A DNA stretch of 64,000 bases from Erythroxylum novogranatense (Eukaryota; Streptophyta; Magnoliopsida; Malpighiales; Erythroxylaceae): NCBI GenBank assembly GCA_029891385.1, contig CM057224.1:35345005-35409004 (forward strand). The letters are read 5' to 3'. The notes under the pieces are model-generated. The model worked only from the letters and a program-made list of their open reading frames with translations, made no database searches and was not told the DNA's origin. Positions 7,884-42,063 of this stretch are shown piece by piece. The position numbers and the translations under genes were made by a program. The stretch's first letter is position 1, and each line of letters begins with the position of its first letter.

Positions 7884-7885
7884 AA

Positions 7886-21596: not shown

Positions 21597-21614
21597 TGGC
21601 GCCGTTGCCGGGGA
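21597..21614 (+). other. Primer binding site, Asp-tRNA type
   Basis: TGGCGCCGTTGCCGGGGA lies five bases after the LTR. This is the site usual in Athila elements. Confidence 0.85.
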
Positions 21615-21660
21615 GTGGTAACGAATTGATTTTGTTTTGTTTTATGCCTAGGAACATTCA

Positions 21661-23289: not shown

Positions 23290-23603
23290 AGTAAACATCC
23301 CACCCTCGAGGCCATTAAACGTGTTCCATACACGCCAAATTCCTTAAGGAATTATGCACAAACAAGCGTAAGTTAACAGGTAATGAAAGGGTGAGTGTGG
23401 GGGAGAATGTTTCAACTGTCTTACAGAGGAAACTACCTCCTAAGTGTCGCGACCAAGGTATGTTTTCCATTCCTTGCAAAATTGGGAACATTGGTATCAG
23501 TAAAGCTATGTGTGACCTAGGGCTTCTATTAATGTGATGCCTTTATCTGCTTATACCTCCACGGTTCTTGGTCCATTAACTAATCTTTGGAGTTATAATT
23601 CAA

Positions 23604-24227: not shown

Positions 24228-25762
24228 CATCGAGACGAGGAGCGTCGAGCCTAGGACGTTAAACAAGGGCGCTAATGGGAGGCAGCCCATATTTTTATTT
24301 TATTTTATTTTTCTTTCTTTTCTTTTGCTTTATTTTGTGTTCTTTTTGTCTCGTTTGTTTCCTTCTTTTTCTTTGTTTTGATCTTTTCCCCTCGTTCCTT
24401 GTGTTTTTCAGGTGATTTGACGTTGGATCAATTAGGAGTTCTTGGATTACAGTTAGCGGGAGTCCTTTATATGATCATATGTTGGCTCTCATCCTCATCG
24501 TACTAGCTATACCCTCATCGGCGGGAGGCCTAAACGAGCTCACGATAAGCCCTCATCTTCTCTCCGATTCGTGGAAGTCCTCGCCACCTTTTCATTTACT
24601 TTTACGTTGAGGACAACGCATGCTTTAAGTGTGGGGAGGTGATTTATGCTTTTGAGATGCATCTGTTTTTGTTTGATGCATTACTTTGGGATGTGCCTCC
24701 GTTGCCTTTTGGTATTTTGGACTTTTAACTGTTGATGCCGTGGTAGACTAAAAAAATCCTCTTTGCTCCATTTTGCTTGATGAATTGTTGTGCCTTAGGT
24801 AATGGTGGATTGTTTTAAAGGAGTCGAGAGTATGGTTGAGTCCCTTGTTGCTTAATGTTAATTAAATGTTAATGATTTTGTCCTATATGTTGAAGTTGCG
24901 GGCCTGAGTTAATTGGTTAGAATTTAAAAAAAATTTGTGTGATTAATCGGTGCCTTTCTTGTCTAGAGTCATGTTAAGCTTAGAAGTTGAGTTGGTATAT
25001 GTGTTGAACTTTGGATTGATGTGGGAAATTATGGTGAGAAAGGGAATGGAGAATAAAAATAAAAAGGTGTTAGATTCGTTCCGCCAATCACCAAAGGTGG
25101 TTGTGAGCGAAGCCAAAAATCCGTCTAAAGGTTGGACAAGACTGAGTAACCGGGCGACATTCATCACAAATGTTTGCGTTCGCGTCAAAAGGTCTCGGAC
25201 AACTGACGTGTGAAGCAATTAACTACTCCTCTGATTACTCGGAAAAAAAAAAACAAAAGAAAAAAAATTGCAAGCATCTGAGTAATTACGAGTAAGGCTA
25301 AAGCCATTTGGCGTTGTGATTGACTGAGTAACCGGGTGACATTCATCACAAATGTTTGCATTCGCGTAAAAAGGCCAATGACAATTCCAAGTAATTTACA
25401 GGTAAAAGCACCTAATCAATTAATTAAGATTAACCTGATCTTCCCATAACTACCACTTAGATTCGGAGTTCCTCGTATATATTAACCACCTGATAAGTGA
25501 AGTGTGATTCCTAGACCTGATTGGTTTTTAATTAAAATTCGGTAATTCATGCATGCGCTTCAATTTGAGTTCAGGCTTGTGTCTTCTCGTGTGGGAAATT
25601 TGTTGCATTTATTTGACATTTCATTGACATTGGGACAAGATTGCGCTCTCATTCCTAGTTTACATTACCTCTGTGCATGTTTCATTTATTGGAGCGGTTT
25701 TTCATTGTGTCTTGGTTTTCTTTTATGCTTGAGGACAAGCATCGTCTAAGTGTGGGGAGATT
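24228..25762 (+). mobile_element. Athila-like 3' non-coding interior with two PPT-like motifs
   Basis: A non-coding region after the pol deletion. It holds a T-rich tract (24,290-24,390), a first GTTGAGGACAACG...AAGTGTGGGGAGG motif at 24,605-24,641, and the terminal GAGGACAAGC...AAGTGTGGGGAGA tract at 25,731-25,760 next to the 3' LTR. A 50-bp segment, actgagtaaccggg..., occurs twice (25,142 and 25,323). Confidence 0.75.
25142..25375. repeat. Local direct repeat (about 52 bp, 2 copies, 181 bp apart)
   Basis: Both copies read actgagtaaccggg, then gacattcatcacaaatg, then tttgc and cgcgt, with four to five mismatches. They sit inside the Athila-like interior. Confidence 0.8.
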
Positions 25763-27283
25763 TGATAAGTGCATATTTGTCTAATATTCATGCTTTAATT
25801 ATTCCTTTTTACTCCTCCTATTGATTCAATTATTGGGGCTTAATTTGATTTAATATTTCTTTGTAGGGAATTATAATTTTTGCATGATTTGAGAAATAAA
25901 GAGAAAAATAGCAAATATGAGAGAGCAAATTAAAAGAGGAAAACGACGCAGTACAAGGCAAGCAAGGAGGCTGGCACGCAGACCCACAAGGAGAAAAGAA
26001 GGAAGAGGGGGGCCCACAGAATTAATTGAAGAGGACAAAACCAAGGAGAAAAGAAGTGAGCAACTTGATGGACTGGGAAGGAGGATTGACGACGTGAGCC
26101 GAGAGGAAGGTAGTGGTGATGTGGCATTAAGGAGACAAGGACTAGCGTGGGAATAATAAGAAAAACAAGTAGGGCTTTAAATTAAGAGGAATAAGTCCTG
26201 ACGCAGCCCATTGGGAGGCGGAGTCACGACTCACGCAAGAAACAAGAGGAATAAAAGGAAAAGCAACGCAACACACAGCGGGAGGTCCAGCGGCTACGCT
26301 GGTGGAGAAAATTCGTGGGACCGACACAGACGTCGGGCAACATCCAGGATTAATTTCCAGATTTCTGCTTTATTAGTTTTTATTTTTCTTTCCTTTGTTA
26401 TGGAGACTATGTTAATTAAGAATTTTGTTAGATTTAATTTTCGTATGAGTAGCTAATCTGTTTTAGTCGGGGAATTCCAATTATTATGCTTTGACTCGTG
26501 AGACCTTGTTTGTTCTGATTATTTGGTTTATAATATTCGTACTGTTTCTGATTTACTGTCATTGTTTATTAATTGATTCTGCGATTGAGGCCTGATTTTA
26601 GAATTAGTTAATTTACATATCGCCAACTGATTTACTTGGTGGAGTCTAGCTGGGTGATCGGTGTTTGTGGCAATTGGCACTAGGGCATAGTATTTGTCTG
26701 ATTTTGTGTGGAGAAACTTGCGATCTAACTAGATGAAGCATGAGTCGCGTAGTCAGTTAGGGTTAGTGTTTCTTTAGAATTTAATGCTGTTAATTAATTG
26801 AATCTCGGAGAGAGTCTCGAAGGGGTTATTAGTTAATTAGGGAATAGTCAAAGGAGTTTCTGCGACTATTCTAAAATTAAGAAGAAACGAGGGAGCCAGA
26901 GGTAGTTGGTAACTATAGCTAACCTATTACTAAACCAAAGAAAATATTCGAGTTGATGGTCGTGGTCTAAGCATAATTAGGAATTTCCTGGCTAAGTTGT
27001 CGTTATTTGAGTTTATCAATTTTATTTGCGTTCTTTGTTATTTGAATCTTAGTTGTTATTTTTATTTAATTTTATTTGAGTTGATAATTTATTAGTTGTT
27101 ATTTCAATTAGTAGTTCCAGTAGAAAACTCTAAACCCCCCATTTTAATTATTTTCATTCGTTCTTTGGCATTTAAATAGAATCAATTATTCCATTCTCTG
27201 TGGATCGACCCCATTTACCACTGTGTGCAATTTATTTTCGTTTGGTGTTTGGGATTTATTTTTGGTGGATTCGACACCCATCA
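25763..27283 (+). mobile_element. Athila-like 3' LTR
   Basis: TGATAAGTGC to CACCCATCA, aligned end to end with 20,079-21,591. It is followed by the second AGAAA. Confidence 0.9.
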
Positions 27284-27622
27284 AGAAAGAAAAAGAAATT
27301 ATTTAATCCTAGATATAAGAAACATTATTCACGTAAATATAAATGGAAGAGATATAAACCACAACGTTATCAACCCAAAACATATCCAAAATATTTTCAG
27401 AGATATAAATACAATCCAAAATATAAGAATGTAAAACAATTTTGTCCTAAAAGAAAAAAATTGTAAATGTTGGATCTGAAGAAGAAGGTCATTATGCAAA
27501 TGAATGTCCTAAAAAGAAAGATAAACAATATAATAATAAAGTACAAATATTATACTCAGCATTAGAACATCAATTAGAACCAATTGAATCGGATTATAAT
27601 ACTGAAACTTCCCTCTATATCT

Positions 27623-29567
27623 ATGAATCTCAATCTGATGAATCAGATATCCAAAACTCTGAATCAAACTCCGAATTCCAATTCAACTTTTATTCAAGTA
27701 ATAGTTCAGAAAACGAAAACTAAAGTACATGCATATATAGACACAGGAGCTACTATTTGTATAGCATCAAAACAATTAGCATTAAAATGGAAAAAGTTAA
27801 ATCAACCTTTACAAGTAAAAATTGCCGATGGAAGTTTTAATTCCATATGGTATGTTAGTTACTATAACACTATCATAATCGAAAATTACACTTTTATAGT
27901 ACCTTCAATCTATCAGAAATAATCTGGATTACCTTTAATTCTTGGAAATAATTTTCTTAAATTATATAACCCTTTTTGTCAGTATTTACATTATATTACT
28001 TTACGAACCCCTTATATTAAGGAAATAAATCAGAGATCTATTATTTTACGAATCCCTATTTATCATACTTCTTATTATCAACAATTAAAATAGTTAACGA
28101 AAAACTTAATCTCTTACATTTTATTTATTGAATAATACAACCATACAAAGTGAAGTCGATAATTTATTAGATCAAGTATGTAGTGAAAACCCATTAGATC
28201 CTACAAAGAATCATAATACGAAATTGTTGAAATTAAATTAAAAGATCCTCTTCAAGAAGTCAATATTAAAAATAATATACCATATACTCTCTTAGATGTA
28301 AAAGAATTTACACAAGAATGTAGTGAATTACTTGACAAAGGATTAATTACCCCCAGTACTAGTAAACATTCAGCACCAGCTTTTTATGTCAATAATTCAG
28401 CTGAAAAGAAACGAGGAAAACGAAGAATGGTTATAAATTATCGAAAACTCAACGAAGCAACTATAGGAGATGCTTATAAATTACCACGAAAAGACTATAT
28501 TATTAACAAATTAAAAGGTCATATTTGGTTTACAACATTAGATGCAAAATCTGGATATTGGCAATTAAGATTACATGATAATACAAAAGCATTAACAGCT
28601 TTTACTTGTCCACCTCAGAAGCATTATCAATGGAATGTATTACCATTTGGATTAAAACAAGCACCAAGTATTTACCAACGGTTTATGGACAATAATCTCT
28701 TGGGATTAGAAGAATTTACTTTTGTATATATTGATGACATTATTATTTATTCAATCAGATAAATTAGATCATTTAAAGAAAGTCAAAATTGTCTTACAAA
28801 GATGTAAAGACAAAGGTTTAATATTAAGTAAACGAAAAGCAAAAATAACACAACAAACAATTGAATATTTAGGTATTCAATTCAATCATCATGGTTATTT
28901 ACAATTACAACCTAATATTTTGCAAAAATTGCAAGAATTTCCTAATCAATTAGCACATAGAAGACAAGTTCAACAATTTTTAGGTTTATTAAACTATATA
29001 TCAGATCAAGGTTTTCTGAAGGATTTAGCAAAAGAAAGAAAACTTTTACAGAAAAAATGTAGCAATAATCTATAATGGCAATGGAATAATCAAGATACTG
29101 AAGCAGTTCAAAGATTAAAACTTCTTTGTAAAAATCTTCCTAAACTTTATAATTATCAACAAGATGATGAATTATTAGTTCAATTAGATGCAAGCAATGA
29201 TACATGGGCAAGTTGTCTTTTGGCAAAACCTCCTAATCATAAAAAACACCATCTTTGCAAATACATAAATGGAACATTTAATTCTGCGGAATTAAATTAT
29301 CCCATTCATGAAAAAGAAGCATTAACCTGTCTCAAAACTTTAAGAAAATGGCGCATAGATCTACTACCAGTAAAATTCACTATTCATACAGATTCTCAAT
29401 ATTTATGTGGATTCACAAGATATCAAATTTCCTCAAGTACTAATTATAATCAAGGACGACTCATCCGATGGCAATTAGAATTAGGTCAGTATCAATTTGT
29501 TATTCATTATATTAAATCTGCTAACAATTTTCTTGCAGATATCTTAACCAGAGAATGGAGGCATTAG
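27623..29567 (+). pseudogene. Viral pol (protease-RT-RNase H), copy 1, frameshifted
   Basis: Starts at the ATG of MNLNLMNQIS, which overlaps the coat-protein tail. The aspartic protease has AYIDTGATICIAS at about 27,733. Breaks occur near 27,920 (TAA), 28,140, 28,213, 28,754 (after YIDDIIIYS, lost bases) and 29,073. The RT part carries VINYRKLNEAT, LDAKSGYWQ, LPFGLKQAPSIYQ and FVYIDDIIIYS. RNase H carries QLDASND, EKEALTCLKTLRKW, IHTDSQYL and NNFLADILTREW, with all expected acidic residues. It converts viral RNA to DNA, primed from the tRNA site. The stop overlaps the transactivator ATG by 13 bases. Confidence 0.88.
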
Positions 29568-31007
29568 TTCTCCAGCTTGAAAATACAATTGCATTAAAGG
29601 AAGCAGAATTAAGAGAATTACATCTTCAAAGCATAAACATTTCAGTTCAGCAAGAAAAAATCAATAGTGAACTTGAACAATTGAAGCAAACACTCCTTAT
29701 CTTAAAACCAAAGGAGCAATCAAGCACTAAAGCATCAGCATCCAGGATAAATCCTGTTGCCTCTATTATTAGTAAAGCACAAGAATCAGTTCAGGTAACA
29801 CAAGCATCAATTCAGGTAATACCTTCCAAGGTCCCTGAAACTCAAGTATCAATATCTAAAGCATCAGTTTCACTTCCTGTGAAACCTTCTATTACAACAT
29901 CAGTACCTCAAAAGGTTGCTGATAATCAAGAATCAAAGCATTATGTTATATATAATGGTCCTTTTGCTGGTATCTATGATCAATGGCATAAGGCGCCTAT
30001 TCATATTATCGAAAAGCAAAGGTCATTCATAAAAGCTTTTCAACTAAAGCGGTCGAGAAATCCTTTCAAGAATTTCAGCATCCAACACTTCGTCCTCAAT
30101 ACAAGACAAGATTTCAAACACCAAGAAGACCCGGTCTCAAAGTTAGTCACTTTGGGAAAATCAATTGATATGGAACGTATTCATGCCGTTCCAGCTAAAG
30201 CATTACATGAAGAAGCAAAAGTATTAACATCGAAATGTTCATGGATTGTTTTCAAGCATTGAATCATTAGATGATTTAAATGAAGCAATTTCAGATTATC
30301 CTCGTAATCGTGGACGCTATGGTCCCAAAGCAGTAATCTTTCCAGGAGCAGAACCTTTCACAACATATATATTATTTCAGAGTGGATTAGCAGATACAAT
30401 CTATCTCCAAGACTTGAAATTATTGGCTGACTTCCCATCCGGGTTAGTTAATGCTATTAAGCAATATAAGGATCGTTTTGCAAGAGAACGAGAAATTTAT
30501 ATTAAGGTTTACAGTAGCTTATCCCATTTTGAAGCATCGAAGCGAAAATGACTATTCAAGACCATAAAGACTTCACGAATTGCGTTTCTCCAAATTGGAG
30601 TAAGTAATCTTCAATATCCACCTATTGATGAAGCACCTCATTATGAATTCACTTGGGATTTGGTCAACAAATTCAATTTGCATTGTCTTGAAGGAATTTA
30701 TAATCAATGTATCAAGATTCAGCCAGATTCTACAATCAAGATCAATTACCGAGGACATAACATCTTATTAACCTCGACATGGAAGAATCCAATCTTGGCT
30801 CATGAATTACCAGTGTTACAAAGATTTCAAGCACCATTCAATGATCTATCTGAATGTTTTCATGATCTCAGCCTTGCTTGGCGAGAAGCAATTTGTAAAC
30901 AATTACAAGAATACCCTACGCACATGTGTAGGCATTGTCCATTATCTCAATCACCAGCCGAAGCTACTAGCAATACTGACGATGAACTCATAATTATTGA
31001 AGAATAA
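29555..31007 (+). pseudogene. Viral transactivator/inclusion protein (TAV), copy 1, frameshifted
   Basis: The ATG lies within the end of pol. It begins with a coiled coil (LENTIALKEAELRELHLQ), then a Ser/Pro/Val linker carrying a 21-base in-frame insertion relative to copy 2 (about 29,800-29,820). Then comes HYVIYNGPFAGIY, the RNase-H-like fold motif of caulimovirus P6 proteins. The C-terminus has a CRHC cluster and an acidic end DDELIIIEE. Frame changes lie near 30,025-30,130, 30,235, 30,270 and 30,540-30,560. In caulimoviruses this protein allows reinitiation on polycistronic RNA and forms inclusion bodies. Confidence 0.85.
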
Positions 31008-31225
31008 TCCGTCAGATCAAGTTCAAAGCATTAAAGTAGCAATCATGTAGGTCTTTTATTACAGACCGTCCATTTGTACATAGTTATGTCTTTTTCTTAA
31101 GCATCTTTTCTTTATGTCATTTAAGTTGTCAACTTTGGCATCTTACTTTTTCTTCATGTCACTTTTTCTTTAGCTCTTTTTCTTTATGTCCTGTCTTGTC
31201 TGTACTCTTTATTCTGTTTCGTTAT

Positions 31226-31233
31226 TATAAATA
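31226..31233 (+). promoter_or_regulatory. TATA box of viral promoter (unit 2)
   Basis: TATAAATA, followed about 45 bases later by the CT-rich leader. The same site is at 39,259-39,266. Confidence 0.8.
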
Positions 31234-31363
31234 GAAGACCTGGGTGTCTGTAAGAGACACAACAAAACTTCCATAAATTACTCTCTCTCTCTCTTCTCTT
31301 ATCGCATATAGTCTCAGAGTGACGTTCAAGCGAGCTTTGACGAAGAACAGGTTAGAGTTTTTT

Positions 31364-31465
31364 ATGAGTTTTGTTTGTCACATTATTATTCCAAGTATTA
31401 TCATTAGCATTATCATTAGTATCATCATCCTCTACATCATTTTTCAGTTATGGTTAGTTTTATGA
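31364..31465 (+). CDS. Viral leader ORF L1 (33 aa, hydrophobic)
   Basis: A 33-codon frame, MSFVCHIIIPS then Ile/Ser repeats, composed almost wholly of membrane-compatible residues. Its TGA overlaps the next ATG as ATGA at 31,462-31,465, as other gene pairs in this virus do. In unit 3 the ATG is changed to ATA, so it is not conserved there. It may be a regulatory upstream ORF rather than a functional protein. Confidence 0.4.
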   Translation: MSFVCHIIIPSIIISIIISIIILYIIFQLWLVL

Positions 31466-31614
31466 ATATCTTCAATCAAATTATTATTGTCTTATTCCTT
31501 TTTATTATTGCAATCATTCATGCATTAATATGTTATACTATTATTGGCATTCTAAAACTTATTCAATTTATTATTTTCATCTTTAAAATATTTTCCCGAC
31601 TTACAAGATTTTAA
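31450..31614 (+). CDS. Viral leader ORF L2 (54 aa, or 50 aa from 31,462; membrane peptide)
   Basis: Open from ATG 31,450 (or the coupled ATG 31,462) to TAA 31,612-31,614, seven bases before ORF A. The peptide is nearly all Ile, Leu, Phe and Val (IIIVLFLFIIAIIHALICY..., then IQFIIFIFKIF) and ends with basic KIFSRLTRF. That makes two possible transmembrane helices with a basic tail. The frame is identical at 39,486-39,650; its 3' end survives at 6,712-6,733. ATT-rich DNA can give such peptides by chance, but the conserved frame and spacing favour a gene. Confidence 0.5.
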   Translation: MVSFMNIFNQIIIVLFLFIIAIIHALICYTIIGILKLIQFIIFIFKIFSRLTRF

Positions 31615-31621
31615 TTTCAGT

Positions 31622-31933
31622 ATGACTTATTTTCATCCCAAACGAACTTTGAAGCAACGCATCAAAGCATTGGACGTGCAAAAAGCCGAATATGAAGAAC
31701 TTAAAATCAAAACTATTGCCAGAAACAAGAAAGCAAATGATATTTATCATGATCCACGTTTTCAGCATTCTCCCAATCATCCTCTTTATACTGAAGCACA
31801 AGAAATTCTCTCTACTGCAAAACAAATGATAGATGAATCAGCAGAATTAATTCGCTATTTAGATTATTATATTCTTGACTGTATCGCAGCACACAAATAT
31901 TTTGTATCCAAATTATCTCTTCTTATTATCTAA
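31622..31933 (+). CDS. Viral ORF A, copy 2 (103 aa)
   Basis: Intact. Same helical protein as copy 1, with TYFHPKRTLKQRIKAL at the start and ARNKKA in the middle. A related 88-aa frame is found outside the array at 52,961-53,227. It lies seven bases after L2 and three before ORF B. Function unknown. Confidence 0.78.
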   Translation: MTYFHPKRTLKQRIKALDVQKAEYEELKIKTIARNKKANDIYHDPRFQHSPNHPLYTEAQEILSTAKQMIDESAELIRYLDYYILDCIAAHKYFVSKLSLLII

Positions 31934-31936
31934 TAA

Positions 31937-32179
31937 ATGGCTTATTTTGATCATCGAAGATCTCTTAAACAAAGAATTCGTTTTTATCAAGAATTGGAAA
32001 CAGAACAACAAAAGTTTATCGAATTATATCATGAACATATACGGATGGCTAAAGCAAATCAATGTTTTCAACTTTTAATAAATGCACGAATTTTATTAGA
32101 TCAAACATTATATATCTATAATTCAGTAAAAGCTGATAGACAAGAATTACAACAAGAAATGGATTTACTCATTGATTAA
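31937..32179 (+). CDS. Viral ORF B, copy 2 (80 aa)
   Basis: Intact. AYFDHRRSLKQRIRFYQELE at the start parallels ORF A, and it ends QQEMDLLID. Nearly identical to copy 3 and clearly different from copy 1. A single helical domain of unknown function. Confidence 0.75.
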   Translation: MAYFDHRRSLKQRIRFYQELETEQQKFIELYHEHIRMAKANQCFQLLINARILLDQTLYIYNSVKADRQELQQEMDLLID

Positions 32180-32194
32180 TCATTAAACATCAGC

Positions 32195-32765
32195 ATGACA
32201 TTTCATTCCTCTTATTTTATTAATTATTGTTTACCTATTATTATCAATCAATTATCTCTTTTTGCTTTTACTCTATTTCAAGCACAATCTTTACTTTTCT
32301 TTATTATTGCCAGTCGATTATTTATATCTCCTGAAATTATTTGTCAATATTTTGAAATTAGTTGTCAATATATTGATATTACTCTGAATTTTTTGTATAG
32401 ATATATATTCCAACTCAATACTCGTTATGGGTTATATAATACGACTCGATGATAGAGATATTATTTTTAATTTCTCACCTCCTTCAGAGGAAGAATCAGA
32501 AACATTCGAATTATTAGAAGATGAAGAAGAAATAGAAAGATTAACACAAATACAACAAGATATTTTTTTAGAACAAATACAACGAGATTTAGACAATGCA
32601 CTACAACAACAATTATAATTGCTCGTAATCAATATCACAATTATTTCCTTCGATACGTAAATAGAAGATATAGATATCACAAGTACGGATTATGATAATA
32701 TAGATGCAGATATTAATTACGACTTAGATAATTTCGATTGTAATACTTTCCCTGAATATTATTAA
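32195..32765 (+). pseudogene. Viral ORF C, copy 2 (frameshifted)
   Basis: The N-terminal half reads open to about 32,424, where tcgttatggg replaces tcgtgtcgg and shifts the frame. The acidic half continues in another frame (32,427-32,618) to a TAA created at 32,616 in a patch rewritten relative to copy 1 (about 32,617-32,660). The original stop is at 32,763-32,765. Confidence 0.75.
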
Positions 32766-32767
32766 AA

Positions 32768-33037
32768 ATGAATTGTCCAATTTGTTTAGATTTAAAAGAA
32801 AGAATTCAATACACACAACAAGCTATTAATCATTATCAAGATCATATTCAATACAATGAAAATCGTATTAATTATCTTATATTTGTAGGCATTAATCGTC
32901 TAAGCAGACGACCATATATTGAACACTTATCAGTAGTACAAAGATTACATCAACAATATACAGAACATTTAGCACAATTAGAACAAATTCAAACTGATCA
33001 TCATTGCTATCATCCTTATCACCCAAATACATTATGA
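32768..33037 (+). CDS. Viral ORF D, copy 2 (89 aa, Cys/His protein)
   Basis: Intact. MNCPICLDLKERI gives a CxxC pair at the start; DHHCYHPYHP gives a His/Cys cluster at the end, with long helices between. Together these could bind one zinc ion. The helical middle (LKERIQYTQQAINHYQDHI) weakly resembles the LKQRI region of ORFs A and B. The stop overlaps the movement-protein ATG at ATGA. Function unknown. Confidence 0.75.
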   Translation: MNCPICLDLKERIQYTQQAINHYQDHIQYNENRINYLIFVGINRLSRRPYIEHLSVVQRLHQQYTEHLAQLEQIQTDHHCYHPYHPNTL

Positions 33038-34020
33038 CTTCCCAAACTTCAACAATCCTCGATGTAGATAATTTAGAACTAACAGAATCATTAGGAACTT
33101 TTCAAGTTTCAACATTGATTACTCAAGATAAGAAAAATCAAATTGCAAAGGCTCAATTAGATTTAAAGAAAGGACAAGACATTCATAAATCAACTTTAAA
33201 ACAAATTTTTAATAGTAAAAATCTTATTTATTATGGAAAACTTATTCAAGAAACACCTATCAGAATTTATCAATGTCATGGAAATTTAAGAATTAGTTTA
33301 ATTGATCCCGAACAAATCAATCGACAATTACAATTATTGCCCAAATCTAAACGTAAGAAAATTGGTTATATTCACTTATCCACTATACAAATATTAATAA
33401 AATCAACTTTTCAAGAAGGAATTGATACTCCCATTAGAATGGCAATATTAGATGAACGAATGAATAACCTCAATGATCAAGTTTTAGGAATGATGAACGG
33501 TAATTTACAATATGGAAAAATTAAATTCAATACTCGATTAAAATTAGGTATTCCTTTAATCTCTTCTGAGTTAGATAAAGCAATTACAATTGCATATAAA
33601 TTTTATAGAAGCAATTTAATGACTCAAGGACAATACCCTTTTTCTTTAACTTATCAAATTAGTTATGCTTTAACCAATTCACATCATAGTATTGATTTCA
33701 AACATACAGAACAAATCTATTTAGATCAATTATTTCAAGAAGTTGCTAAAGTAGGAATTAAAATTCAACCAACATTACAACCGCTTCCAGCAATACAACA
33801 ACCTTTTAATTTAGCACCATTAATTGAAAGAAGACATTGTTTTTCTGAATCAACATCAAATATCACTCCTCTCCTTAGATCTATTTCATTAAGACATCAA
33901 CGAACTCTTCATATAGAACGACCCTTAAGAATAACAGAACCAAATAATCAGATCAGACAGTTAGATGAAATTCAACATCAACTTTCTACATTATCCACAT
34001 ACCTAGTTCAGAAATTATGA
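33034..34020 (+). CDS. Viral movement protein, copy 2 (328 aa, intact)
   Basis: The start is the ATG of MTSQTSTILDVDN, which overlaps the ORF D stop; an upstream extension is not conserved. It is the only uninterrupted movement gene in the array. The central region (GYIHLSTIQILIKSTFQEGIDTPI, with nearby DERMNNL) fits caulimovirid members of the 30K family, which open plasmodesmata and form tubules. The C-terminus has a Ser/Arg-rich stretch (ERRHCFSESTSN) and a coil. It belongs to a second lineage relative to copies 1 and 3 (NSKNLIYYGKLIQ, LAPLIE). The stop overlaps the next ATG. Confidence 0.85.
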   Translation: MTSQTSTILDVDNLELTESLGTFQVSTLITQDKKNQIAKAQLDLKKGQDIHKSTLKQIFNSKNLIYYGKLIQETPIRIYQCHGNLRISLIDPEQINRQLQLLPKSKRKKIGYIHLSTIQILIKSTFQEGIDTPIRMAILDERMNNLNDQVLGMMNGNLQYGKIKFNTRLKLGIPLISSELDKAITIAYKFYRSNLMTQGQYPFSLTYQISYALTNSHHSIDFKHTEQIYLDQLFQEVAKVGIKIQPTLQPLPAIQQPFNLAPLIERRHCFSESTSNITPLLRSISLRHQRTLHIERPLRITEPNNQIRQLDEIQHQLSTLSTYLVQKL

Positions 34021-34232
34021 CATCATTAACAAATCTCACTCAACATCTAGAGTCTATAGTACAAACACAAGAAATATTACAACAAAAAATTGAAGCTTTA
34101 TTGCAGACCCAAATAGAAATAGTATCATTAATTCAACAAATAAATTAGAAAATACAAGAAACAAATGACCAAATAATAGTACGAGAACCATCCCCGAAAA
34201 TGGTATCAAAAATACCCCGTGAACGAGGATAA
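34017..34232 (+). pseudogene. Viral 76-aa coiled-coil ORF, copy 2 (nonsense, primer site deleted)
   Basis: Same start overlap as copy 1. CAG has become TAG at 34,146-34,148, which truncates it to 43 codons. A 15-base in-frame deletion after tggtatc (34,201-34,207) removes the right half of the tRNA primer site. The TAA at 34,230 abuts the coat ATG. Confidence 0.8.
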
Positions 34233-35774
34233 ATGCAAGATCAATCTATAGAACAAATTGAAAAGAATATTCAATTACAATTACATGAAGTAACTGACTT
34301 AATACGAAAATTACATCTTACCCCTTTAGAAAAAGAAGAGACAATTTGTCCAGTATTTTCAAATGAACATAAAGATGAAATAATTTTAGGTTATGAATCT
34401 GACCAAGATCAAGAACTTTTTATGGATAATGATGAAAAACCTGAAAGTAGTAACACTCAAGAATTAAAATTAAAAGAAAAATTAGGTGATAAAAGAAAAA
34501 CTACATTTCAACCTCCATGTTATACTTGGAAAAATGATAAAGATGATTTTCTTCATCAACAAGGATATTATTACAAAGGCACAAAAATACGCAAATACCC
34601 AGATGAATATAAACCACAAATCTCAAAATTAAGTACTAATAATATATTAAATCTAGATTGTACAACAAATGCCGAAGAAATATTTCAAGAATGGTTTTCT
34701 AAAATCTTATTATTATTACAAGTAGAAAAACCTTTTGGTAATAAATCTACAACTAAAGACTCCTATATTATTTTGTCATTTATAAAACATCCTAATAGTA
34801 CAAGACTTTTAAGAGACAATGCTCAAGCATTACAAAATACACCACACTATCTTAGTCAACTTATCGATTTAAGATAAATTTGAAATTATTAGCGAAGAAA
34901 TATATAAAGAATTTTTGGAAAGGATATTATATTTCATCAAGTAGATATATTAAAAGAAAACGATTAAAAGCATTAAGACATTTAAACAATTTAATGATTT
35001 GTGATATAAATTATTTAGAGGCTTTTATTTGTGAATTTAAAAACATTATTATAAATTACCTCGGGTTGAACAAGAAATGTATATTAATATTTTTATTCAA
35101 AAATTACCATATCCCTTTAATATAAAGGTTCAACAACAATTTTATGAACGTATAGAAAATCATACAATAGTTCATAATTTAGGAGGCGCAATACTAGTAT
35201 CCCGTGACTTATTAGTTGATTATTGTTTAGAAGCTCAATTAAAAAGAACATTAAAACATAAAAATTTAACGTTATGTTGCGACCAAAATGCTGACGTACC
35301 TCAACAATATGGATGTAATAAAACTTATTCTAACTATAGAAAGAAAAAGAAATTATTTAATCCTAGATATAAGAAACATTATTCACGTAAATATAAATGG
35401 AAGAGATATAAACCACAACGTTATCAACCCAAAACATATCCAAAATATTTTCGCAGATATAAATACAATCCAAAATATAAGAACAGAAAACAATTTTGTC
35501 CTAAAAAGAAAAAAAAATGTAAATGTTGGATCTGTAAAGAAGAAGGTCATTATGCAAATGAATGTCCTAAAAGAAAGATAAACAATATAATAATAAAGTA
35601 CAAATATTATACTCAAGATTAGAACATCAATTAGAACCAATTGAATCGGATTATAATCTCAAACTTCCTCTATATCTATGAATCTCAATCGATGAATCGA
35701 TATCCAAAACTCGAATCAAACTCCAATTCCAATTCAACTTTTATTCAAGTAATAGTTCAGAAAACGAAAACTAA
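34233..35774 (+). pseudogene. Viral coat protein, copy 2 (frameshifted)
   Basis: The first 214 codons are open (acidic N-terminus EKEETICPVFSNEHKDE; capsid core WFSKILLLLQVEKPFGNKST). Frame breaks follow near 34,877, 34,920 and 35,055, at the same places as in copy 1. The distal part (35,077-35,622) has the LVSRDLLVDYCLEAQL segment, a Lys/Tyr/Arg-rich basic region, and an intact zinc knuckle CWICKEEGHYANEC at about 35,525. Another frameshift leads into the acidic tail, which ends at 35,774. This is the nucleic-acid-binding capsid subunit. Confidence 0.85.
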
Positions 35775-37614
35775 AGTACATGCATATATAGACACAGGAG
35801 CTACTATTTGTATAGCATCAAAACAATTAGCATTAAAATGGAAAAGTTAAATCAACCTTTACAAGTAAAATTGCCGATGGAAGTTTTAATTCCATATGGT
35901 ATGTTAGTTACTATAACACTATCATAATCGAAAATTACACTTTTATAGTACCTTCAATCTATCGAAATAATCTGGATTACCTTTAATTCTTGGAAATAAT
36001 TTTCTTAAATTATATAACCCTTTTTGTCAAGATTTACATTATATTACTTTACTTAACCCCTTATATTAAGGAAATAAATCGAGATCTATTATTTTACTTA
36101 ATCCCTATTTATCATACTTCTTATTATCAACAATTAAAATAGTTAACGAAAACTTAATCTCTTACATTTTATTTATTGAATAATACAACCATACAAAGTG
36201 AAGTCGATAATTTATTAGATCAAGTATGTAGTGAAAACCCATTAGATCCTACAAAGAATCATAATACAGAAATTGTTGAAATTAAATTAAAAGATCCTCT
36301 TCAAGAAGTCAATATTAAAAATAATATACCATATACTCTCTTAGATGTAAAAGAATTTACACAAGAATGTAGTGAATTACTTGACAAAGGATTAATTACC
36401 CCCAGTACTAGTAAACATTCAGCACCAGCTTTTTATGTCAATAATTCAGCTGAAAAGAAACGAGGAAAACGAAGATTGGTTATAAATTATCGAAAACTCA
36501 ACGAAGCAACTATAGGAGATGCTTATAAATTACCACGAAAAGACTATATTATTAACAAATTAAAAGGTCATATTTGGTTTACAACATTAGATGTAAAATC
36601 TGGATATTGGCAATTAAGATTACATGATAATACAAAAGCATTAACAGCTTTTACTTGTCCACCTCAGAAGCATTATCAATGGAATGTATTACCATTTGGA
36701 TTAAAACAAGCACCAAGTATTTACCAACGGTTTATGGACAATAATCTCTTGGGATTAGAAGAATTTACTTTTGTATATATTGATGACATTATTATTTATT
36801 CGAATCAGGATAAATTAGATCATTTAAAGAAAGTCAAAATTGTCTTACAAAGATGTAAAGACAAAGGTTTAATATTAAGTAAACGAAAAGCAAAAATAGC
36901 ACAACAAACAATTGAATATTTAGGTATTCAATTCAATCATCATGGTTATTTACAATTACAACCTAATATTTTGCAAAAATTGCAAGAATTTCCTAATCAA
37001 TTAGCACATGAAGACAAGTTCAACAATTTTAGGTTTATTAAACTATATATCGATCAAGGTTTTCTGAAGGATTTAGCAAAAGAAAGAAAACTTTTACAGA
37101 AAAAATGTAGCAGTAATCTACAATGGCAATGGAATAATCAAGATACTGAAGCAGTTCAAAGATTAAAACTTCTTTGTAAAAATCTTCCTAAACTTATAAT
37201 GATCAACAAGATGATGAATTATTAGTTCAATTAGATGCAAGCAATGATACATGGGCAGGTTGTCTTTTGGCAAAACCTCCTAATCATAAAAAACACCATC
37301 TTTGCAAATACATAAATGGAACATTTAATTCTGCGGAATTAAATTATCCCATTCATGAAAAAGAAGCATTAGCCTGTCTCAAAACTTTAAGAAAATGGCG
37401 CATAGATCTACTACCAGTAAAATTCACTATTCATACAGATTCTCAATATTTATGTGGATTCACAAGATATCAAATTTCCTCAAGTACTAATTATAATCAA
37501 GGACGACTCATCCGATGGCAATTAGAATTAGGTCAGTATCAATTTGTTATTCATTATATTAAATCTGCTAACAATTTTCTTGCAGATATCTTAACCAGAG
37601 AATGGAGGCATTAG
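35678..37614 (+). pseudogene. Viral pol (protease-RT-RNase H), copy 2, frameshifted
   Basis: The ATG at 35,678 lies within the coat tail. The protease AYIDTGATICIAS is present; a base loss at about 35,848 and further losses to 36,175 break the frame. The RT then reads open from 36,176 to 37,225: GLITPSTSKHSAPAFYV, VINYRKLNEAT, LDVKSGYWQ, LPFGLKQAPSIYQ, FVYIDDIIIYSNQD. Three single-base losses near 37,010-37,055 cancel to keep frame but garble a segment. RNase H continues at 37,194-37,614 with EKEALACLKTLRKW, IHTDSQYLCGF and NNFLADILTREW. It overlaps the TAV start by 13 bases. Confidence 0.88.
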
Positions 37615-39039
37615 TTCTCCAGCTTGAAAATACAATTGCATTAAAGGAAGCAGAATTAACAGAATTACATCTTCAAAGCATAAACATTTCATTTCAGCAA
37701 GAAAAAATCAATAGTGAACTTGAACAATTGAAGCAAACACTCCTTGTCTTAAAACCAAAGGAGCAATCAAGCACTAAAGCTTCAGCATCCAGGATAAATC
37801 CTGTTGCCTCTATTATTAGTAAAGCACAAGAATCAGTTCAGGTAACACCTTCCAAGGTCCCTGAAACTCAAGTATCAATATCTAAAGCATCAGTTTCACT
37901 TCCTGTGAAACCTTCTATTACAACATCAGTACCTCAAAAGGTTGCTGATAATCAAGAATCAAAGCATTATGTTATATATAATGGTCCTTTTGCTGGTATC
38001 TATGATCAATGGCATAAGGCAGCTATTCATATTCTCGAAAAGCAAAGTCATTCATAAAAGCTTTTCAACTAAAGCAGAAGCTGAGAAATCCTTTCAAGAA
38101 TTTCAGCATCCAACACTTCGTCCTCAATACAAGACAGTACTTCAAACACCAGCAACACCAGTCTCAAAGTTAGTCACTTTGAGAAAATCAATTGATATGG
38201 AACGTATTCATGCCGTTCCAGCTAAAGCATTACATGAAGAAGCAAAAGTATTAACATCAGAAATGTTCATGGATTGTTTTCAAGCATTGAATCATTGGAC
38301 AGACGAAATGAAGCAATTTCAGTATTATCCTCAGAATCGTGGACGCTATGGTCCCAAAGCAGTAATCTTTCCAGGAGCAGAACCTTTGACAACATATCTA
38401 TTATTTCAGAGTGGATTAGCAGATACAATCTATCTCCAAGACTTGAAATTATTGGCTGACTTCCCATCCGGGTTAGTTAATGCTATTAAGCAATATAAGG
38501 ATCGTTTTGCAAGAGAACGAGAAATTTATATTAAGGTTTACAGCAGTTATCCCATTTTTGAAGCATCAGAAGCAGAAACAGCTATTCAAGCAGCCATAAA
38601 GACTTCACGAATTGCTTTTCTCCAAATTGGAGTAAGTAATCTTCAATATCCATCCATTGATGAAGCACCTCATTATGAATTCACTTGGGATTTGGTTAAC
38701 AAATTCAATTTGCATTGTCTTGAAGGAATTTATAATCAATGTATCAAGATTCAGCCAGATTCTACAATCAAGATCAATTACCGAGGCAATAACATCTTAT
38801 TAACCTCGACATGGAAGAATCCAATCTTGGCTCATGAATTACCAGTGTTACAAAGATTTCAAGCACCGTTCAACGATCTACCTGAATGTTTTCATGATCT
38901 CAGCGTTGCTTGGCGAGAAGCAATTTGTAAACAATTACAAGAATACCCTACGCACAGGTGTAGGCATTGTCCATTATCTCAAGCACCAGCCGAAGCTACT
39001 AGCAATACTGACGATGAACTCATAATTATTGAAGAATAA
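37602..39039 (+). pseudogene. Viral transactivator (TAV), copy 2, one frameshift
   Basis: Nearly complete. It is open from the ATG to 38,057, and the rest is open in another frame to 39,039, so a small indel near 38,040 is the only break seen. Order: N-terminal coil, Ser/Thr/Pro linker, HYVIYNGPFAGIYDQWHKA at about residue 115, then HKSFSTKAEAEKSF (RNase-H-like fold). The central part has GPKAVIFPGAEPLTTYLLF, and the C-terminus has CRHCPLS and DDELIIIEE. Caulimovirus relatives use it for reinitiation across polycistronic RNA. Confidence 0.87.
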
Positions 39040-39657
39040 TCCGTCAGATCAAGTTCAAAGCATTAAAGTAGCAATCATGTAGGTCTTTTATTACAGACCG
39101 TCCACTTGTACATAGTTATGTCTTTTTCTTTAAGCATCTTTTCTTTATGTCGTGTAAGTTGTCAACTTTGACATCTTACTTTTTCTTTATGTCACTTTTA
39201 CTTTAGCTCTTTTTCTTTATGTCCCGTCTTCTCTGTACTCTTTATTCCGTTTCGTTATTATAAATAGAAGACTTGGGTGTCTATCATGGACACAGCAAAA
39301 CTTCCATAAATTACTCTCTCTCTCTCTCTTCTCTTATCGCATATAGTCTCAGAGTGACGTTCAAGCGAGCTTTGACGAAGAACAGGTTAGAGTTTTTTTA
39401 TAAGTTTTGTTTGTCACATTATTATTCCAAGTATTATCATTAGCATTATCATTAGTATCATCATCCTCTACATCATTTTTCAGTTATGGTTAGTTTTATG
39501 AATATCTTCAATCAAATTATTATTGTCTTATTCCTTTTTATTATTGCAATCATTCATGCATTAATATGTTATACTATTATTGGCATTCTAAAACTTATTC
39601 AATTTATTATTTTCATCTTTAAAATATTTTCCCGACTTACAAGATTTTAATTTCAGC
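39040..39657 (+). promoter_or_regulatory. Viral intergenic region and promoter, between units 2 and 3
   Basis: A near-copy of 31,008-31,621. TATAAATA is at 39,259-39,266, a CT tract at about 39,315-39,333, and TGACG motifs at about 39,356 and 39,374. Small differences include gtctatcatggacacag for gtctgtaagagacacaa. The L1 start ATG is lost, while L2 is preserved. Confidence 0.8.
39486..39650 (+). CDS. Viral leader ORF L2, unit 3 (54 aa, membrane peptide)
   Basis: Identical reading frame to 31,450-31,614, ending TAA seven bases before ORF A. Hydrophobic throughout with a basic C-terminus. Confidence 0.5.
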   Translation: MVSFMNIFNQIIIVLFLFIIAIIHALICYTIIGILKLIQFIIFIFKIFSRLTRF

Positions 39658-39969
39658 ATGACTTATTTTCATCCCAAACGAACTTTGAAGCAACGCATCA
39701 AAGCATTGGACGTGCAAAAAGCCGAATATGAAGAACTTAAAATAAAAACTATTGCCAGAAACAAGAAAGCAAATGATATTTATCATGATTCACGTTTTCA
39801 ACATTCTCCCAATCATCCTCTTTATACTGAAGCACAAGAAATTCTCTCTACTGCAAAACAAATGATAGATGAATCAGCAGAATTAATTCGCTATTTAGAT
39901 TATTGTATTCTTGACTGTATCGCAGCACACAAATATTTTGTATCCAAATTATCTCTTCTTATTATCTAA
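39658..39969 (+). CDS. Viral ORF A, copy 3 (103 aa)
   Basis: Intact and close to copy 2 (PKRTL, EELKIK, ILDC); HDSRF is its own change. Function unknown, see copies 1 and 2. Confidence 0.77.
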   Translation: MTYFHPKRTLKQRIKALDVQKAEYEELKIKTIARNKKANDIYHDSRFQHSPNHPLYTEAQEILSTAKQMIDESAELIRYLDYCILDCIAAHKYFVSKLSLLII

Positions 39970-39972
39970 TAA

Positions 39973-40215
39973 ATGGCTTATTTTGATCATCGAAGATCTC
40001 TTAAACAAAGAATTCGTTTTTATCAAGAATTGGAAACAGAACAACAAAAGTTTATCGAATTATATCATGAACATATAAGGATGGCTAAAGCAAATCAATG
40101 TTTTCAACTTTTAATAAATGCACGAATTTTATTAGATCAAACATTATATATCTATAATTCAGTAAAAGCTGATAGACAAGAATTACAACAAGAAATTAAT
40201 TTACTCATTGATTAA
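39973..40215 (+). CDS. Viral ORF B, copy 3 (80 aa)
   Basis: Intact and almost identical to copy 2 (only INLLID for MDLLID at the end). Immediately after it the sequence switches to copy-1-like. Confidence 0.75.
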   Translation: MAYFDHRRSLKQRIRFYQELETEQQKFIELYHEHIRMAKANQCFQLLINARILLDQTLYIYNSVKADRQELQQEINLLID

Positions 40216-40230
40216 TCATTGCATATCAGC

Positions 40231-40795
40231 ATGACATTTCATTCCTCATATTTTATTAATTATTGTTTACCTATTATTATCGATCAATTATATCTTTATG
40301 CCTTTACTCTATTTCAAGCACAATCTTTACTTTTCTTTATTATTGCCGATCAATTATTTATCTCTCCTGAAATTATTTGTCAAGATTTTGAAATTAGTTG
40401 TCAATATATTGATATTACGCTTAATTATTTATATAGACATATATTCCAACTCAATACTGTGTCGGTTATATAATACGACTCGATGATAGAGATATTATTT
40501 TGATTTCTCACCTCCTTGGAGGAAGAATCGAAACATTCAATTATTAGAAGATGAAGAAGAAATAGAAAGATTAACACAAATACAACAAGATATTTTTTTA
40601 GAACAAATACAACGAGATTTAGACAATGCACTACAACAACAATTATACTGTTCAGAATCAATATCACAATTATTTCCTTCTGATACAGAAATAGAAGATA
40701 TAGATATCACAAGTACGGATTATGATAATATAGATGAAGATATTAATTACGACTTAGATAATTTCGATTGTAATATTTTTCCTGAAGATTATTAG
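40231..40795 (+). pseudogene. Viral ORF C, copy 3 (frameshifted)
   Basis: Starts MTFHSSYF. Bases are lost at about 40,459 (actgtgtc for actcgtgtc), at about 40,498, and in the patch 40,515-40,540 (ttggaggaagaatcgaaac for ttcagaggaagaatcagaaac). The acidic C-terminal part is otherwise like copy 1, ending FPEDY at 40,793-40,795. Confidence 0.75.
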
Positions 40796-40797
40796 AA

Positions 40798-41067
40798 ATG
40801 AATTGTCCGATTTGTCTAGATTTACAAGAAAGAATTCAATACACACAACAAGCTCTTAATCATTACCAAGATCATATTCAATACAATGAAAATCGTATTA
40901 ATTATCTTATATTTGTAGGCATTAATCGTCTAAGCAGACGACCATATATTGAACACTTATCAGTAGTACAAAGATTACATCAACAATATACAGAACATTT
41001 AGCACAATTAGAACAAATTCAAACTGATCATCATTGCTATCATCCTTATCACCCATATACATTATGA
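40798..41067 (+). CDS. Viral ORF D, copy 3 (89 aa)
   Basis: Intact. CPICLDLQERIQYTQQALNH is like copy 1 and differs from copy 2 (LKERI, QQAINH). CxxC at the start, HHCYHPYHP at the end. It overlaps the movement ATG. Confidence 0.75.
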   Translation: MNCPICLDLQERIQYTQQALNHYQDHIQYNENRINYLIFVGINRLSRRPYIEHLSVVQRLHQQYTEHLAQLEQIQTDHHCYHPYHPYTL

Positions 41068-42049
41068 CTTCCCAAACTTCAACAATCCTCGATGTAGATA
41101 ATTTAGAGCTAAAAGAATCATTAGGAACTTTTCAAGTTTCAACATTGATTACTCAAGATAAGAAAAATCAAATTGCAAAGGCTCAATTAGATTTAAAGAA
41201 AGGACAAGACATTCATAAATCAACTTTAAAACAAATTTTTAATAGACAAAATCTTATTTATTATGGAAAGATTATTCAAGAAACACCTATCAGAATTGAC
41301 CAATGTCATGGAAATTTAAGAATTAGTTTAATTGATCCCGAACAAATCAATAGACAATTACAATTATTGCCTCAATCTAAACGTAAGAAAATTGGTTATA
41401 TTCACTTATCCACTATACAAATATTATTAAAATCAACTTTTAGGAAGGTATTGATACTCCCATTAGAATGGCAATATTAGATGAGCGAATGAATAACCTA
41501 AATGATCAAGTTTTAGGAATGATGAACGGTAATTTACAATATGGAAAAATTAAATTTAATACTCGATTAAAATTAGGTATTCCTTTAATCTCTTCTGAGT
41601 TAGATAAAGCAATTACAATTGCATATAAATTTTATAGAAGCAATTTAATGACTCAAGGACAATACCCTTTTTCTTTAACTTATCAAATTAGTTATGCTTT
41701 AACTAATTCACATCATAGTATTGATTTCAAAAATACAGAACAAATCTATCTCGATCAATTATTTCAAGAAGTTGCTAAAGTAGGAATCAAAATTCAACCA
41801 AAATTACAACCACTTCCAGCAATACAACAACCTTTTAATCAAACACCATTAATTGAAAGAAGACATTCTTTTTCTGAATCATCATCCAATATAACTCCTC
41901 TCCTTAGATCCATTTCATTAAGGCATCAACGACCTCTCAATATAGAAAGACCTTTAAGAATAACAGAACCTAGTAATCAAACAAGACAATTAGATGAAAT
42001 TCAGAATCAGATTTCAACATTATCTACATATTTAATTCAAAAATTATGA
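41064..42049 (+). pseudogene. Viral movement protein, copy 3 (one frameshift)
   Basis: Open from ATG 41,064 to about 41,440, where a base is lost (ttttaggaagg for ttttcaggaagg in copy 1). The remainder, 41,468-42,049, is open in the shifted frame. It matches copy 1 (NRQNLIYYGKIIQ, QTPLIERRHSFSESSSN). Confidence 0.83.
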
Positions 42050-42063
42050 CATCATTAACAAAT
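42046..42063 (+). pseudogene. First codons of the 76-aa viral ORF; right end of array
   Basis: atgacatcattaacaaat matches units 1 and 2 and then diverges into ttgattttagcacggg. This marks the junction between viral and flanking DNA. Confidence 0.8.

What the first reader, a model, noticed from the sequence alone, without database searches (positions are those of the whole stretch)
31226..39657. Caulimovirid genome with an unusual gene order, possibly an undescribed genus
One full 8,036-bp unit reads promoter, two leader ORFs, A, B, C, D, movement protein, 76-aa coil ORF with primer site, coat, pol, transactivator. In caulimoviruses and soymoviruses as I know them, the movement gene lies near the start and the small genes lie between it and the coat gene. 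Here four small ORFs precede the movement gene and only one small ORF, the primer-site one, separates it from coat.
Basis: partly seen in the sequence, partly recalled or inferred. Interest (0 to 1): 0.88.

Follow-up and report, generated by a model that had tools for sequence, protein, structure and literature searches.

The report
Endogenous plant virus, unusual gene order
A plant chromosome carries a decayed, head-to-tail array of an old caulimovirus-type virus whose small genes sit before, not after, the movement gene; the same order is found in a second, clearly different viral lineage elsewhere in the same genome, so it is real, but whether it is a new genus could not be tested here.

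Summary
The window (unnamed 1.3 Gb genome) holds 2.3 head-to-tail units of about 8.03 kb of an endogenous caulimovirid, cut by two LTR-type insertions. The cited unit itself is decayed: coil ORF cut to 43 aa, primer site with 3 mismatches, C, coat, pol and TAV broken.
The order is no accident of this array: it recurs in copy L054 and, with other small ORFs, in a second lineage of the same genome (RT-RNase H 75.6-77.6% nt, coat 44% aa). A, B, C, D, MP and coil show purifying selection between copies (dN/dS 0.07-0.36). Six of 8 coil stretches carry the primer site, in one reading frame.
Soymoviruses also put the primer site just after MP but have at most one ORF before MP and three or four between MP and coat; cotton eCPRVE has two before MP and one after. 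So the combination looks new, its parts have precedents. RT groups with unclassified copies from Trifolium and Asteraceae; without named-genus references, 'new genus' is plausible, not shown.

The parts
31226..31235 (+). TATA box TATAAATAGA; repeated at 39259-39268
31364..31465 (+). leader ORF 1, 33 aa; its ATG is lost in the next unit
31447..31614 (+). leader ORF 2, 55 aa, hydrophobic, kept in the next unit; coding status unsure (T-rich DNA)
31622..31933 (+). ORF A, 103 aa; open in 3 of 3 window copies; paralogue of B; dN/dS 0.22 against L054
31937..32179 (+). ORF B, 80 aa; open in 3 of 3 window copies; dN/dS 0.19 against L054
32195..32618 (+). ORF C, frame broken here (32195-32452 and 32427-32618); one 189-aa ORF in the copy at 7314-7880: hydrophobic first part, acidic second part
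32768..33037 (+). ORF D, 89 aa, CPIC at its start; ATGA overlap with MP
33034..34020 (+). movement protein, 328 aa, PF01107; ATGA overlap with the coil ORF
34017..34148 (+). coil ORF, cut to 43 aa here; 76 aa in the copy at 18738-18968
34201..34212 (+). tRNA-Met primer site, 3 mismatches here; exact at 18922-18933
34233..35622 (+). coat protein, broken into 34233-34877 and 35041-35622; zinc knuckle CWICKEEGHYANEC at 35524
35635..37614 (+). pol, broken: protease 35635-35850, RT 36158-37225, RNase H 37192-37614
37602..39039 (+). transactivator, frameshifted: 37572-38057 (ATG at 37602) and 37909-39039; GLADTIY at 38413
39658..42063 (+). start of the next unit (A to coil start); right end of the array
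27284..31225 (+). previous unit, coat to TAV
17762..20078 (+). earlier stretch of the array: MP, 76-aa coil ORF with exact primer site, broken coat
6712..8170 (+). left end of the array: A, B, unsplit C, D
20079..27283 (+). LTR element inserted in the array: TG...CA ends, LTRs 20079-21592 and 25763-27283 (K2P 0.042), AGAAA on both sides
8173..17761 (+). LTR-type repeat element(s) inserted in the array; 8173-9658 against 13339-14823 K2P 0.015

Best explanation
This is a decayed head-to-tail array of an extinct or unseen TAV-encoding caulimovirid of a lineage in which the accessory genes lie between the promoter and MP and only a short coil gene lies between MP and coat. Shown by sequence: the order, its recurrence in a second lineage, selection on the accessory genes between copies, and the primer site inside the coil gene. 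Inferred: one Pol II pregenomic RNA starts below the TATA box at 31226; ribosomes pass along the tightly packed ORFs A-B-C-D-MP-coil-coat-pol by TAV-driven reinitiation; tRNA-Met primes minus-strand DNA about 2.9 kb from the RNA 5' end, so the first DNA copy spans the accessory genes and MP; the coil protein, next to coat, does the job of a virion-associated protein. Functions of A-D are not known; A and B are a duplicated gene, D is a small protein with a Cys-x2-Cys pair at its start.
For: Array and insertions. Domains. Order repeated: L054 A>B>C>D>MP>coil+site>coat>protease; L040, L044 and L048 in lineage 2; L052 and L039 show TAV followed by the small ORFs. Lineage 2 RT-RNase H 75.6-77.6% nt in 4 of 4 stretches fetched (chosen as less similar places), against 82.1-94.5% in 29 of 29 lineage-1 copies; the two are separate subclades (96/91 and 98/98). 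Window against L054 dN/dS: A 0.22, B 0.19, C 0.36 (part), D 0.07 (part), MP 0.09 (part), coil 0.23. Spacing: gaps of 3, 15 and 2 nt at A/B, B/C and C/D, ATGA overlaps at D/MP and MP/coil, TAAATG at coil/coat, a 13-nt overlap at pol/TAV (coat/pol not examined), as reported for reinitiating caulimovirids (passages, PMC5902531). Primer site inside the coil ORF, same reading phase, in 6 of the 6 coil stretches that carry it. TAV motif GLADTIY exact.
Against: A profile of A and B found no homologue in the protein database (29 candidates, none at E<=10), so their role is open; C and D were not searched there. Likeness of the small ORFs between lineages is weak: D E 1e-4 at best, B to L040 ORF 1 E 0.028, A and coil no hit at E<=0.1, coil 26-28% identical. 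The leader does not fold better than shuffles (z -1.12 and -0.01) and no AATAAA lies at 30900-31700 or 38900-39700, so shunt stem and poly(A) signal, usual in the family, are not supported. The Pfam scans of A, B, the C pieces, D and coil show no caulimovirid accessory family. Coil scoring is crude: coil ORF 9 of 500 shuffles as high, TAV start 310 of 500. Two lineage-2 pairs show no clear selection (D 0.97, ORF 1 0.68). Of 17 fetched upstream stretches several are rearranged or nearly empty.
Confidence: 0.8

Rival explanations
1. It is a divergent member of genus Soymovirus (or of the endogenous 'Soymovirus' clusters in print) whose accessory genes were moved or replaced; the genus would simply be wider than thought.
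For: Primer site in an ORF after MP, TAV after pol, separate MP, coat, pol and TAV as in soymoviruses (PMC6482551; PMC7374169). TAV GLADTIY identical to the string given for blueberry red ringspot virus. Nearest named RT copies are from Trifolium and Asteraceae; printed endogenous Soymovirus clusters include Medicago and a multi-family cluster with Lactuca (table in PMC9794742).
Against: Four or more ORFs, not one, before MP; one, not three, between MP and coat. Host overlap is weak: Caulimovirus-01 in the same table has Helianthus. GLADTIY is described there as conserved among caulimoviruses, not as a genus mark. The WCSV-1 string GLVCQMY is not matched (best 3 of 7).
Confidence: 0.4
2. An undescribed genus, with its own gene order and accessory genes, of which this genome keeps at least two species.
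For: Order differs from all orders read in print; found in two lineages; the 10 own-genome RT rows in the tree form one clade (100/100) apart from all foreign rows used; RT core 58-62% to the nearest long foreign rows, near the 62% genus-level line of PMC13308828; no homologue of A/B found.
Against: Three partial foreign rows are 66.7-70.6% identical, and the larger clade with Trifolium and Asteraceae copies (100/99) may already be a named group; the gene order of those relatives is unknown.
Confidence: 0.5
3. The order is an artefact of rearrangement or of array joints in the chromosome.
For: Some fetched loci are rearranged (L042, L049), and such rearrangement is reported for endogenous caulimovirids (PMC1899175, passages).
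Against: Same order in three window copies of A-D, in L054 and in a second lineage, with kept stop-start junctions.
Confidence: 0.02
4. ORFs A-D are chance open frames in AT-rich DNA.
For: No homologue of A/B found; short; weak likeness between lineages.
Against: 0 of 1000 resamplings in each of 3 copies; dN/dS 0.07-0.36 against L054; synonymous excess in B, p 0.0023; A/B-like, D-like and coil ORFs in the same places in lineage 2.
Confidence: 0.03

Closest known systems
Genus Soymovirus (blueberry red ringspot virus, water chestnut soymovirus-1, SbCMV, PCSV)
   Same: Separate MP, coat, pol, TAV; TAV after pol; primer site in an ORF after MP, far below the TATA box (2.06 kb from WCSV-1's printed coordinates); TAV motif GLADTIY as in BRRV; similar zinc-knuckle and protease strings.
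   Different: Soymoviruses: one ORF (VII; none in CmYLCV) before MP and three ORFs (four in WCSV-1) between MP and coat. Here four or more before MP, one between; TATA to primer site 2.97 kb.
Cotton eCPRVE / cotton virus A, eCPRVE being grouped in print with grapevine pararetrovirus and plant-associated caulimovirus 1
   Same: Two small ORFs before MP, one small ORF (13K) between MP and coat, then RT and TA (PMC10458927, sections 3.1 and 3.3).
   Different: Primer site at the start, before those ORFs; only two ORFs before MP; figwort mosaic virus RT named first among its top matches. Not compared by sequence here.
Genus Caulimovirus (CaMV)
   Same: Polycistronic RNA, MP, coat, protease, RT, TAV; short stop-start gaps.
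   Different: Two ORFs between MP and coat, primer site near the end of the leader; no caulimovirid accessory family found by Pfam here.
Solendovirus/Cavemovirus (TVCV-like endogenous copies)
   Same: TAV gene; AT-rich endogenous copies in plant genomes.
   Different: Four ORFs; here nine apart from the leader ORFs.
Wendovirus
   Same: Endogenous, clade A, said to be related to Soymovirus and Xendovirus.
   Different: Four ORFs, coat zinc finger before MP, two protease domains.

Membership tests
Caulimoviridae | 30K MP, zinc-knuckle coat, aspartic protease, RT, RNase H on one strand | tested here: met
Caulimoviridae | tRNA-Met primer site | tested here: met
   exact at 18922 in the array (3 matches in the window, two of them outside the viral stretches, 0.16 expected); 3 mismatches in the cited unit
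Caulimoviridae | circular genome of 7.1-9.8 kb | tested here: met
   head-to-tail units of 8.03 kb; circularity is inferred, from TAV followed by the small ORFs (window, L052, L039)
Soymovirus | primer site in an ORF downstream of MP | tested here: met
   genus trait from PMC6482551 passages
Soymovirus | three ORFs between MP and coat | tested here: not met
   one coil ORF; genus trait
Soymovirus | at most one ORF (VII) between promoter and MP | tested here: not met
   A, B, C, D; five in L040; trait
Soymovirus | TAV conserved heptapeptide | tested here: inconclusive
   GLADTIY of BRRV exact in both window TAV copies and in 19 of 29 lineage-1 loci, 4 more with one change, 6 without; GLVCQMY of WCSV-1 not matched
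Soymovirus | RT clusters with soymovirus RT | not testable with these tools
   no relative in viral contigs; no virus-named row among those listed, and full-length pols were outside the length limit
Caulimovirus | primer site in the leader, before the first large ORF | tested here: not met
   site lies after MP; trait
Solendovirus/Cavemovirus | four ORFs | tested here: not met
   genus trait
Petuvirus, Vaccinivirus | one ORF | tested here: not met
   separate MP, coat and pol frames; trait
Florendovirus | MP, coat and pol in one large ORF1 | tested here: not met
   trait
Wendovirus | coat zinc finger before MP, two protease domains | tested here: not met
   MP before coat, one protease found; trait
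Rosadnavirus | no TAV recognisable by BLAST | tested here: not met
   TAV homologue present; trait from PMC5902531 passage; the gene order of rose yellow vein virus could not be read
cotton eCPRVE group | primer site, two small ORFs, MP, one small ORF, coat, RT, TA | tested here: not met
   small ORFs before MP and a single ORF after it are shared; primer site position and ORF number differ
all | virion shape, vector | not testable with these tools
   no virus in hand

The most novel reading that the evidence does not exclude
An undescribed caulimovirid genus, kept in this genome as at least two species, with its accessory genes upstream of MP, including a duplicated gene (A/B), and the minus-strand primer site fixed in frame inside the coil gene next to coat, so that the first DNA copy is about 2.9 kb long.
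Probability: 0.5. Interest if true: 0.6.

Novelty: new variant of a known kind. Interest (0 to 1): 0.5.

Why it matters
Gene order is one of the criteria by which caulimovirid genera are told apart. A second, conserved order among TAV-bearing members shows that the accessory block can sit before MP while the primer site stays just after MP, and gives five selected genes (A-D and coil) of unknown function to study.

Tried and rejected
Artefact of array joints: rejected by L054 and lineage 2. Chance ORFs: rejected. RT against named genera: viral contigs gave no relative with RT, MP profile or RT profile. A/B homologues: none. Ribosome-shunt stem in the leader: not supported. Poly(A) signal AATAAA near the promoter: not found. 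TAV N-terminal coil like that reported for cavemo- and solendoviruses (PMC6135502, passage): my crude score did not separate it from shuffles. One dN/dS script misaligned rows with stops; it was rerun and only the rerun is cited. One search took the main-unit primer site one base off and so counted 10 mismatches; one search prints it, 3 mismatches. In one search the rows MP 1-2 and TAVc are disturbed by frameshifts and are not relied on. Literature searches behind 'not in print': (open-access PMC only; figures and supplements not readable). Papers: PMC7660458 whole text; PMC10377300 one section and passages; PMC13308828 abstract, two sections and passages; PMC5766536 first part and passages; PMC6482551 one section and passages; PMC10458927 two sections and passages; passages only of PMC5902531, PMC6135502, PMC9794742, PMC9781968, PMC11281623, PMC4241990, PMC4411674, PMC7374169, PMC1899175.
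Full report
What is there. Self-comparison shows viral stretches 6712-8170, 17762-20078 and 27284-42063, in one direction, with a period of 8026-8054 bp and 96.3% identity between neighbouring units over 6.8 kb. They are one array of about 18.6 kb (2.3 units) split by two LTR-type insertions. The insertion 20079-27283 starts TG, ends CA, has 1.5-kb LTRs (K2P 0.042) and AGAAA on both sides, a target-site duplication; the other has repeats with K2P 0.015. With a plant rate of 1.3e-8 per site and year (recalled, not looked up) the older insertion would be about 1.6 million years old, so the array is at least that old.

Gene order. On the + strand from the TATA box at 31226: two short leader ORFs, A, B, C, D, MP, coil ORF, coat, pol, TAV. 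MP, zinc knuckle, A3 protease, RT and RNase H pass the Pfam cut-offs. TAV does not pass its cut-off (E 0.1) but matches an Artemisia protein that carries RNase H and TAV domains (P0091; 32% over 199 aa, E 1e-20, and 59% over 27 aa) and has the exact string GLADTIY, printed for ORF VI of blueberry red ringspot virus (passage in PMC7374169). The cited unit is broken in C, coil, coat, pol and TAV; other copies in the array show C as one 189-aa ORF and the coil ORF as 76 aa with an exact primer site. The ORFs are packed: 3 nt between A and B, 15 between B and C, 2 between C and D, ATGA overlaps at D/MP and MP/coil, TAAATG at coil/coat, a 13-nt overlap at pol/TAV; coat/pol was not examined.

The order recurs. 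A whole-genome search with the RT scored 114 places (lower bound), 67-100% identical. I fetched upstream stretches of 17 of them (14 less similar ones, 3 more similar ones). L054 repeats A>B>C>D>MP>coil with exact primer site>coat>protease, with A only 53% identical. L040 (lineage 2) has ORFs 1>2>3>4>D>MP>coil with primer site (1 mismatch)>coat>protease; L044 has 1>2>3>4>D>MP>coil; L048 has 3>4>D>MP>coil with site (1 mismatch)>coat>protease; L052 has coat end, TAV, 1>2>3>4>D, and L039 coat end, TAV, 1>2, as a circle would give. L055 has coil with exact site>coat (and a stray coat piece upstream); L047 has the end of MP, the site, then coat. L042 keeps D>MP>coil+site but has a TAV piece before coat, and L049 has TAV before coat without MP: rearranged. 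L041, L046, L050, L051 and L053 hold only coat, protease or loose pieces, L043 nothing, and L045 a short MP piece (mostly withheld). So the small-ORFs-before-MP order is directly seen in L054, L040, L044, L048 and (D only) L042, and in none of the 17 did the queries show A-D-like ORFs between MP and coat.

Two species. Lineage 2 falls below the 80% species line in RT-RNase H (rule: passages in PMC13308828 and PMC4241990): 75.6-77.6% nt in 4 of 4 stretches (L056-L059, picked as less similar places), against 82.1-94.5% in 29 of 29 lineage-1 copies. In the tree they are separate subclades (96/91 and 98/98). Coat is 44% identical over 495 residues between L054 and L040; piecewise against the broken window coat it is 33-57%. 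MP against the window is 64-65% in L044 and L048, 46% and 34% in the decayed L042 and L040, and 68% on a 50-residue piece of L045.

The small genes are genes. Window against L054: dN/dS A 0.22, B 0.19, C 0.36 (131 codons), D 0.07 (54 codons), coil 0.23, MP 0.09 (273 codons). Lineage-2 pairs: ORF 2 0.23, ORF 3 0.25, coil 0.45, D 0.37 (31 codons); but D between L044 and L042 0.97 and ORF 1 between L040 and L039 0.68, that is, no clear selection there. Within the window the MP at 33034 differs from the two other copies by 53 and 56 base changes with a strong synonymous excess (p 3.7e-10 and 6.1e-8), and B at 7056 likewise (p 0.0023), while A, D, TAV and RT differ too little to tell (p 0.35, 0.084, 0.058, 0.54). 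So the array seems to join at least two viral variants that had diverged before integration. A and B are paralogues (E 4e-5 in a single comparison), and lineage 2 has two ORFs in the same place with a like start (M, one to three residues, YF) and a C-terminal LI(D/N) by eye; their identity to A is 23% and the best E, B to L040 ORF 1, is 0.028. D of lineage 2 keeps a Cys-x2-Cys pair (E 1e-4 for L042) and the D/MP overlap in L042 and L044. Coil is 26-28% identical between lineages. A profile of A and B found no homologue in the protein database; C and D were not searched there.

Primer site. Of 8 coil stretches looked at (two in the window, L040, L042, L044, L048, L054, L055), 6 hold the site with at most one mismatch, all in the same reading phase; the main unit (3 mismatches) and L044 do not. 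TATA to site is 2.97 kb here; from the printed coordinates of WCSV-1 it is 2.06 kb. A long stretch between RNA start and primer site is thus a soymovirus trait too.

Relatives. MP: 49 proteins, best 68% over the whole length on an unnamed 7421-base contig, then Rutidosis at 46%. RT: 311 proteins, 120 listed; the 355-aa query admits proteins up to about 620 aa, so full-length pols were not candidates. In a quick tree of 118 rows (the window and 117 of the 120 listed; P0066, P0091 and P0109 left out) the window RT falls in an 18-row clade (SH-aLRT 100) with Trifolium repens, Artemisia, Rutidosis and Tanacetum. In a careful tree of 39 chosen rows (the window, 9 other own-genome places of the 114, 29 of the 120 listed proteins) the ten own-genome rows are one clade (100/100) inside a 25-row clade (100/99), with a group holding Abeliophyllum copies next (94/96). 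RT-core identity to the longest neighbours is 58-62% over 208-237 aa, and 66.7-70.6% over 157-174 aa for three partial rows. Printed lines are 62% for genus-level OTUs (PMC13308828, sections 6 and 7) and 'Cluster60' (PMC9794742, passages). No named virus RT was in reach, so genus membership stays open.

What is in print. Soymoviruses: ORF VII before MP (none in CmYLCV), three ORFs between MP and coat (four in WCSV-1), primer site in an ORF after MP (PMC6482551, passages and section 7; BRRV order in PMC7374169, passages). Cotton eCPRVE: primer site, 14.4K, 24.4K, MP, 13K, coat, RT, TA, two small ORFs, proposed as a new taxon (PMC10458927, sections 3.1 and 3.3). Wendoviruses, florendoviruses, TVCV-like and single-ORF genera differ more. 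The gene order of rose yellow vein virus could not be read in what was held. I found no paper with this exact order in nine searches of open-access papers; figures and supplements could not be read, so an unlabelled drawing may exist.

How it most likely worked. One RNA from the TATA promoter, TAV-driven reinitiation along the packed ORFs, minus-strand priming in the coil gene (inferred from anatomy and from what is known of CaMV, PMC5902531 passages). A leader stem for ribosome shunting is not supported by folding (14 and 49 of 100 shuffles fold at least as well). The coil protein as a virion-associated protein rests on its place before coat and a weak coil signal only (9 of 500 shuffles as high).

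Verdict. A real, unusual gene order in an endogenous caulimovirid, shared by two lineages; a new variant of a known kind; new genus about even odds.

Noticed in passing
window 33034-34020 against 41064-42049 and 17756-18741: MP of the main unit is 5.6% (K2P) from two copies that are 1.1% apart, with a synonymous excess: two viral variants in one array.
   Followed up: partly
G000:C1:35293955-35316154: Three further RT copies (77-87% aa) lie about 29-51 kb left of the window: a local cluster of endogenous virus.
   Followed up: no
G000:C8:88080214-88081254: An RT copy lies in a listed open frame of 2189 aa with one TGA, far longer than pol; cause unknown.
   Followed up: no
L040 (reverse strand) 710-886: A 46% match to the first 46 residues of ORF 3 lies before ORF 1 in lineage 2: perhaps another duplicated accessory gene.
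   Followed up: no
L046 and L049 (coat pieces): Their coat is only about 39-57% identical to the window's and 42-57% to that of L040: perhaps a third lineage.
   Followed up: no
window 8173-17761: The first insertion looks like an LTR element with a partial second internal copy (9512-12563 against 14712-17770, 96%).
   Followed up: no
window 42358-46283: 184-bp direct repeats 3.7 kb apart, with a tRNA-Met primer site on the minus strand at 46088: a separate LTR element to the right of the array.
   Followed up: no
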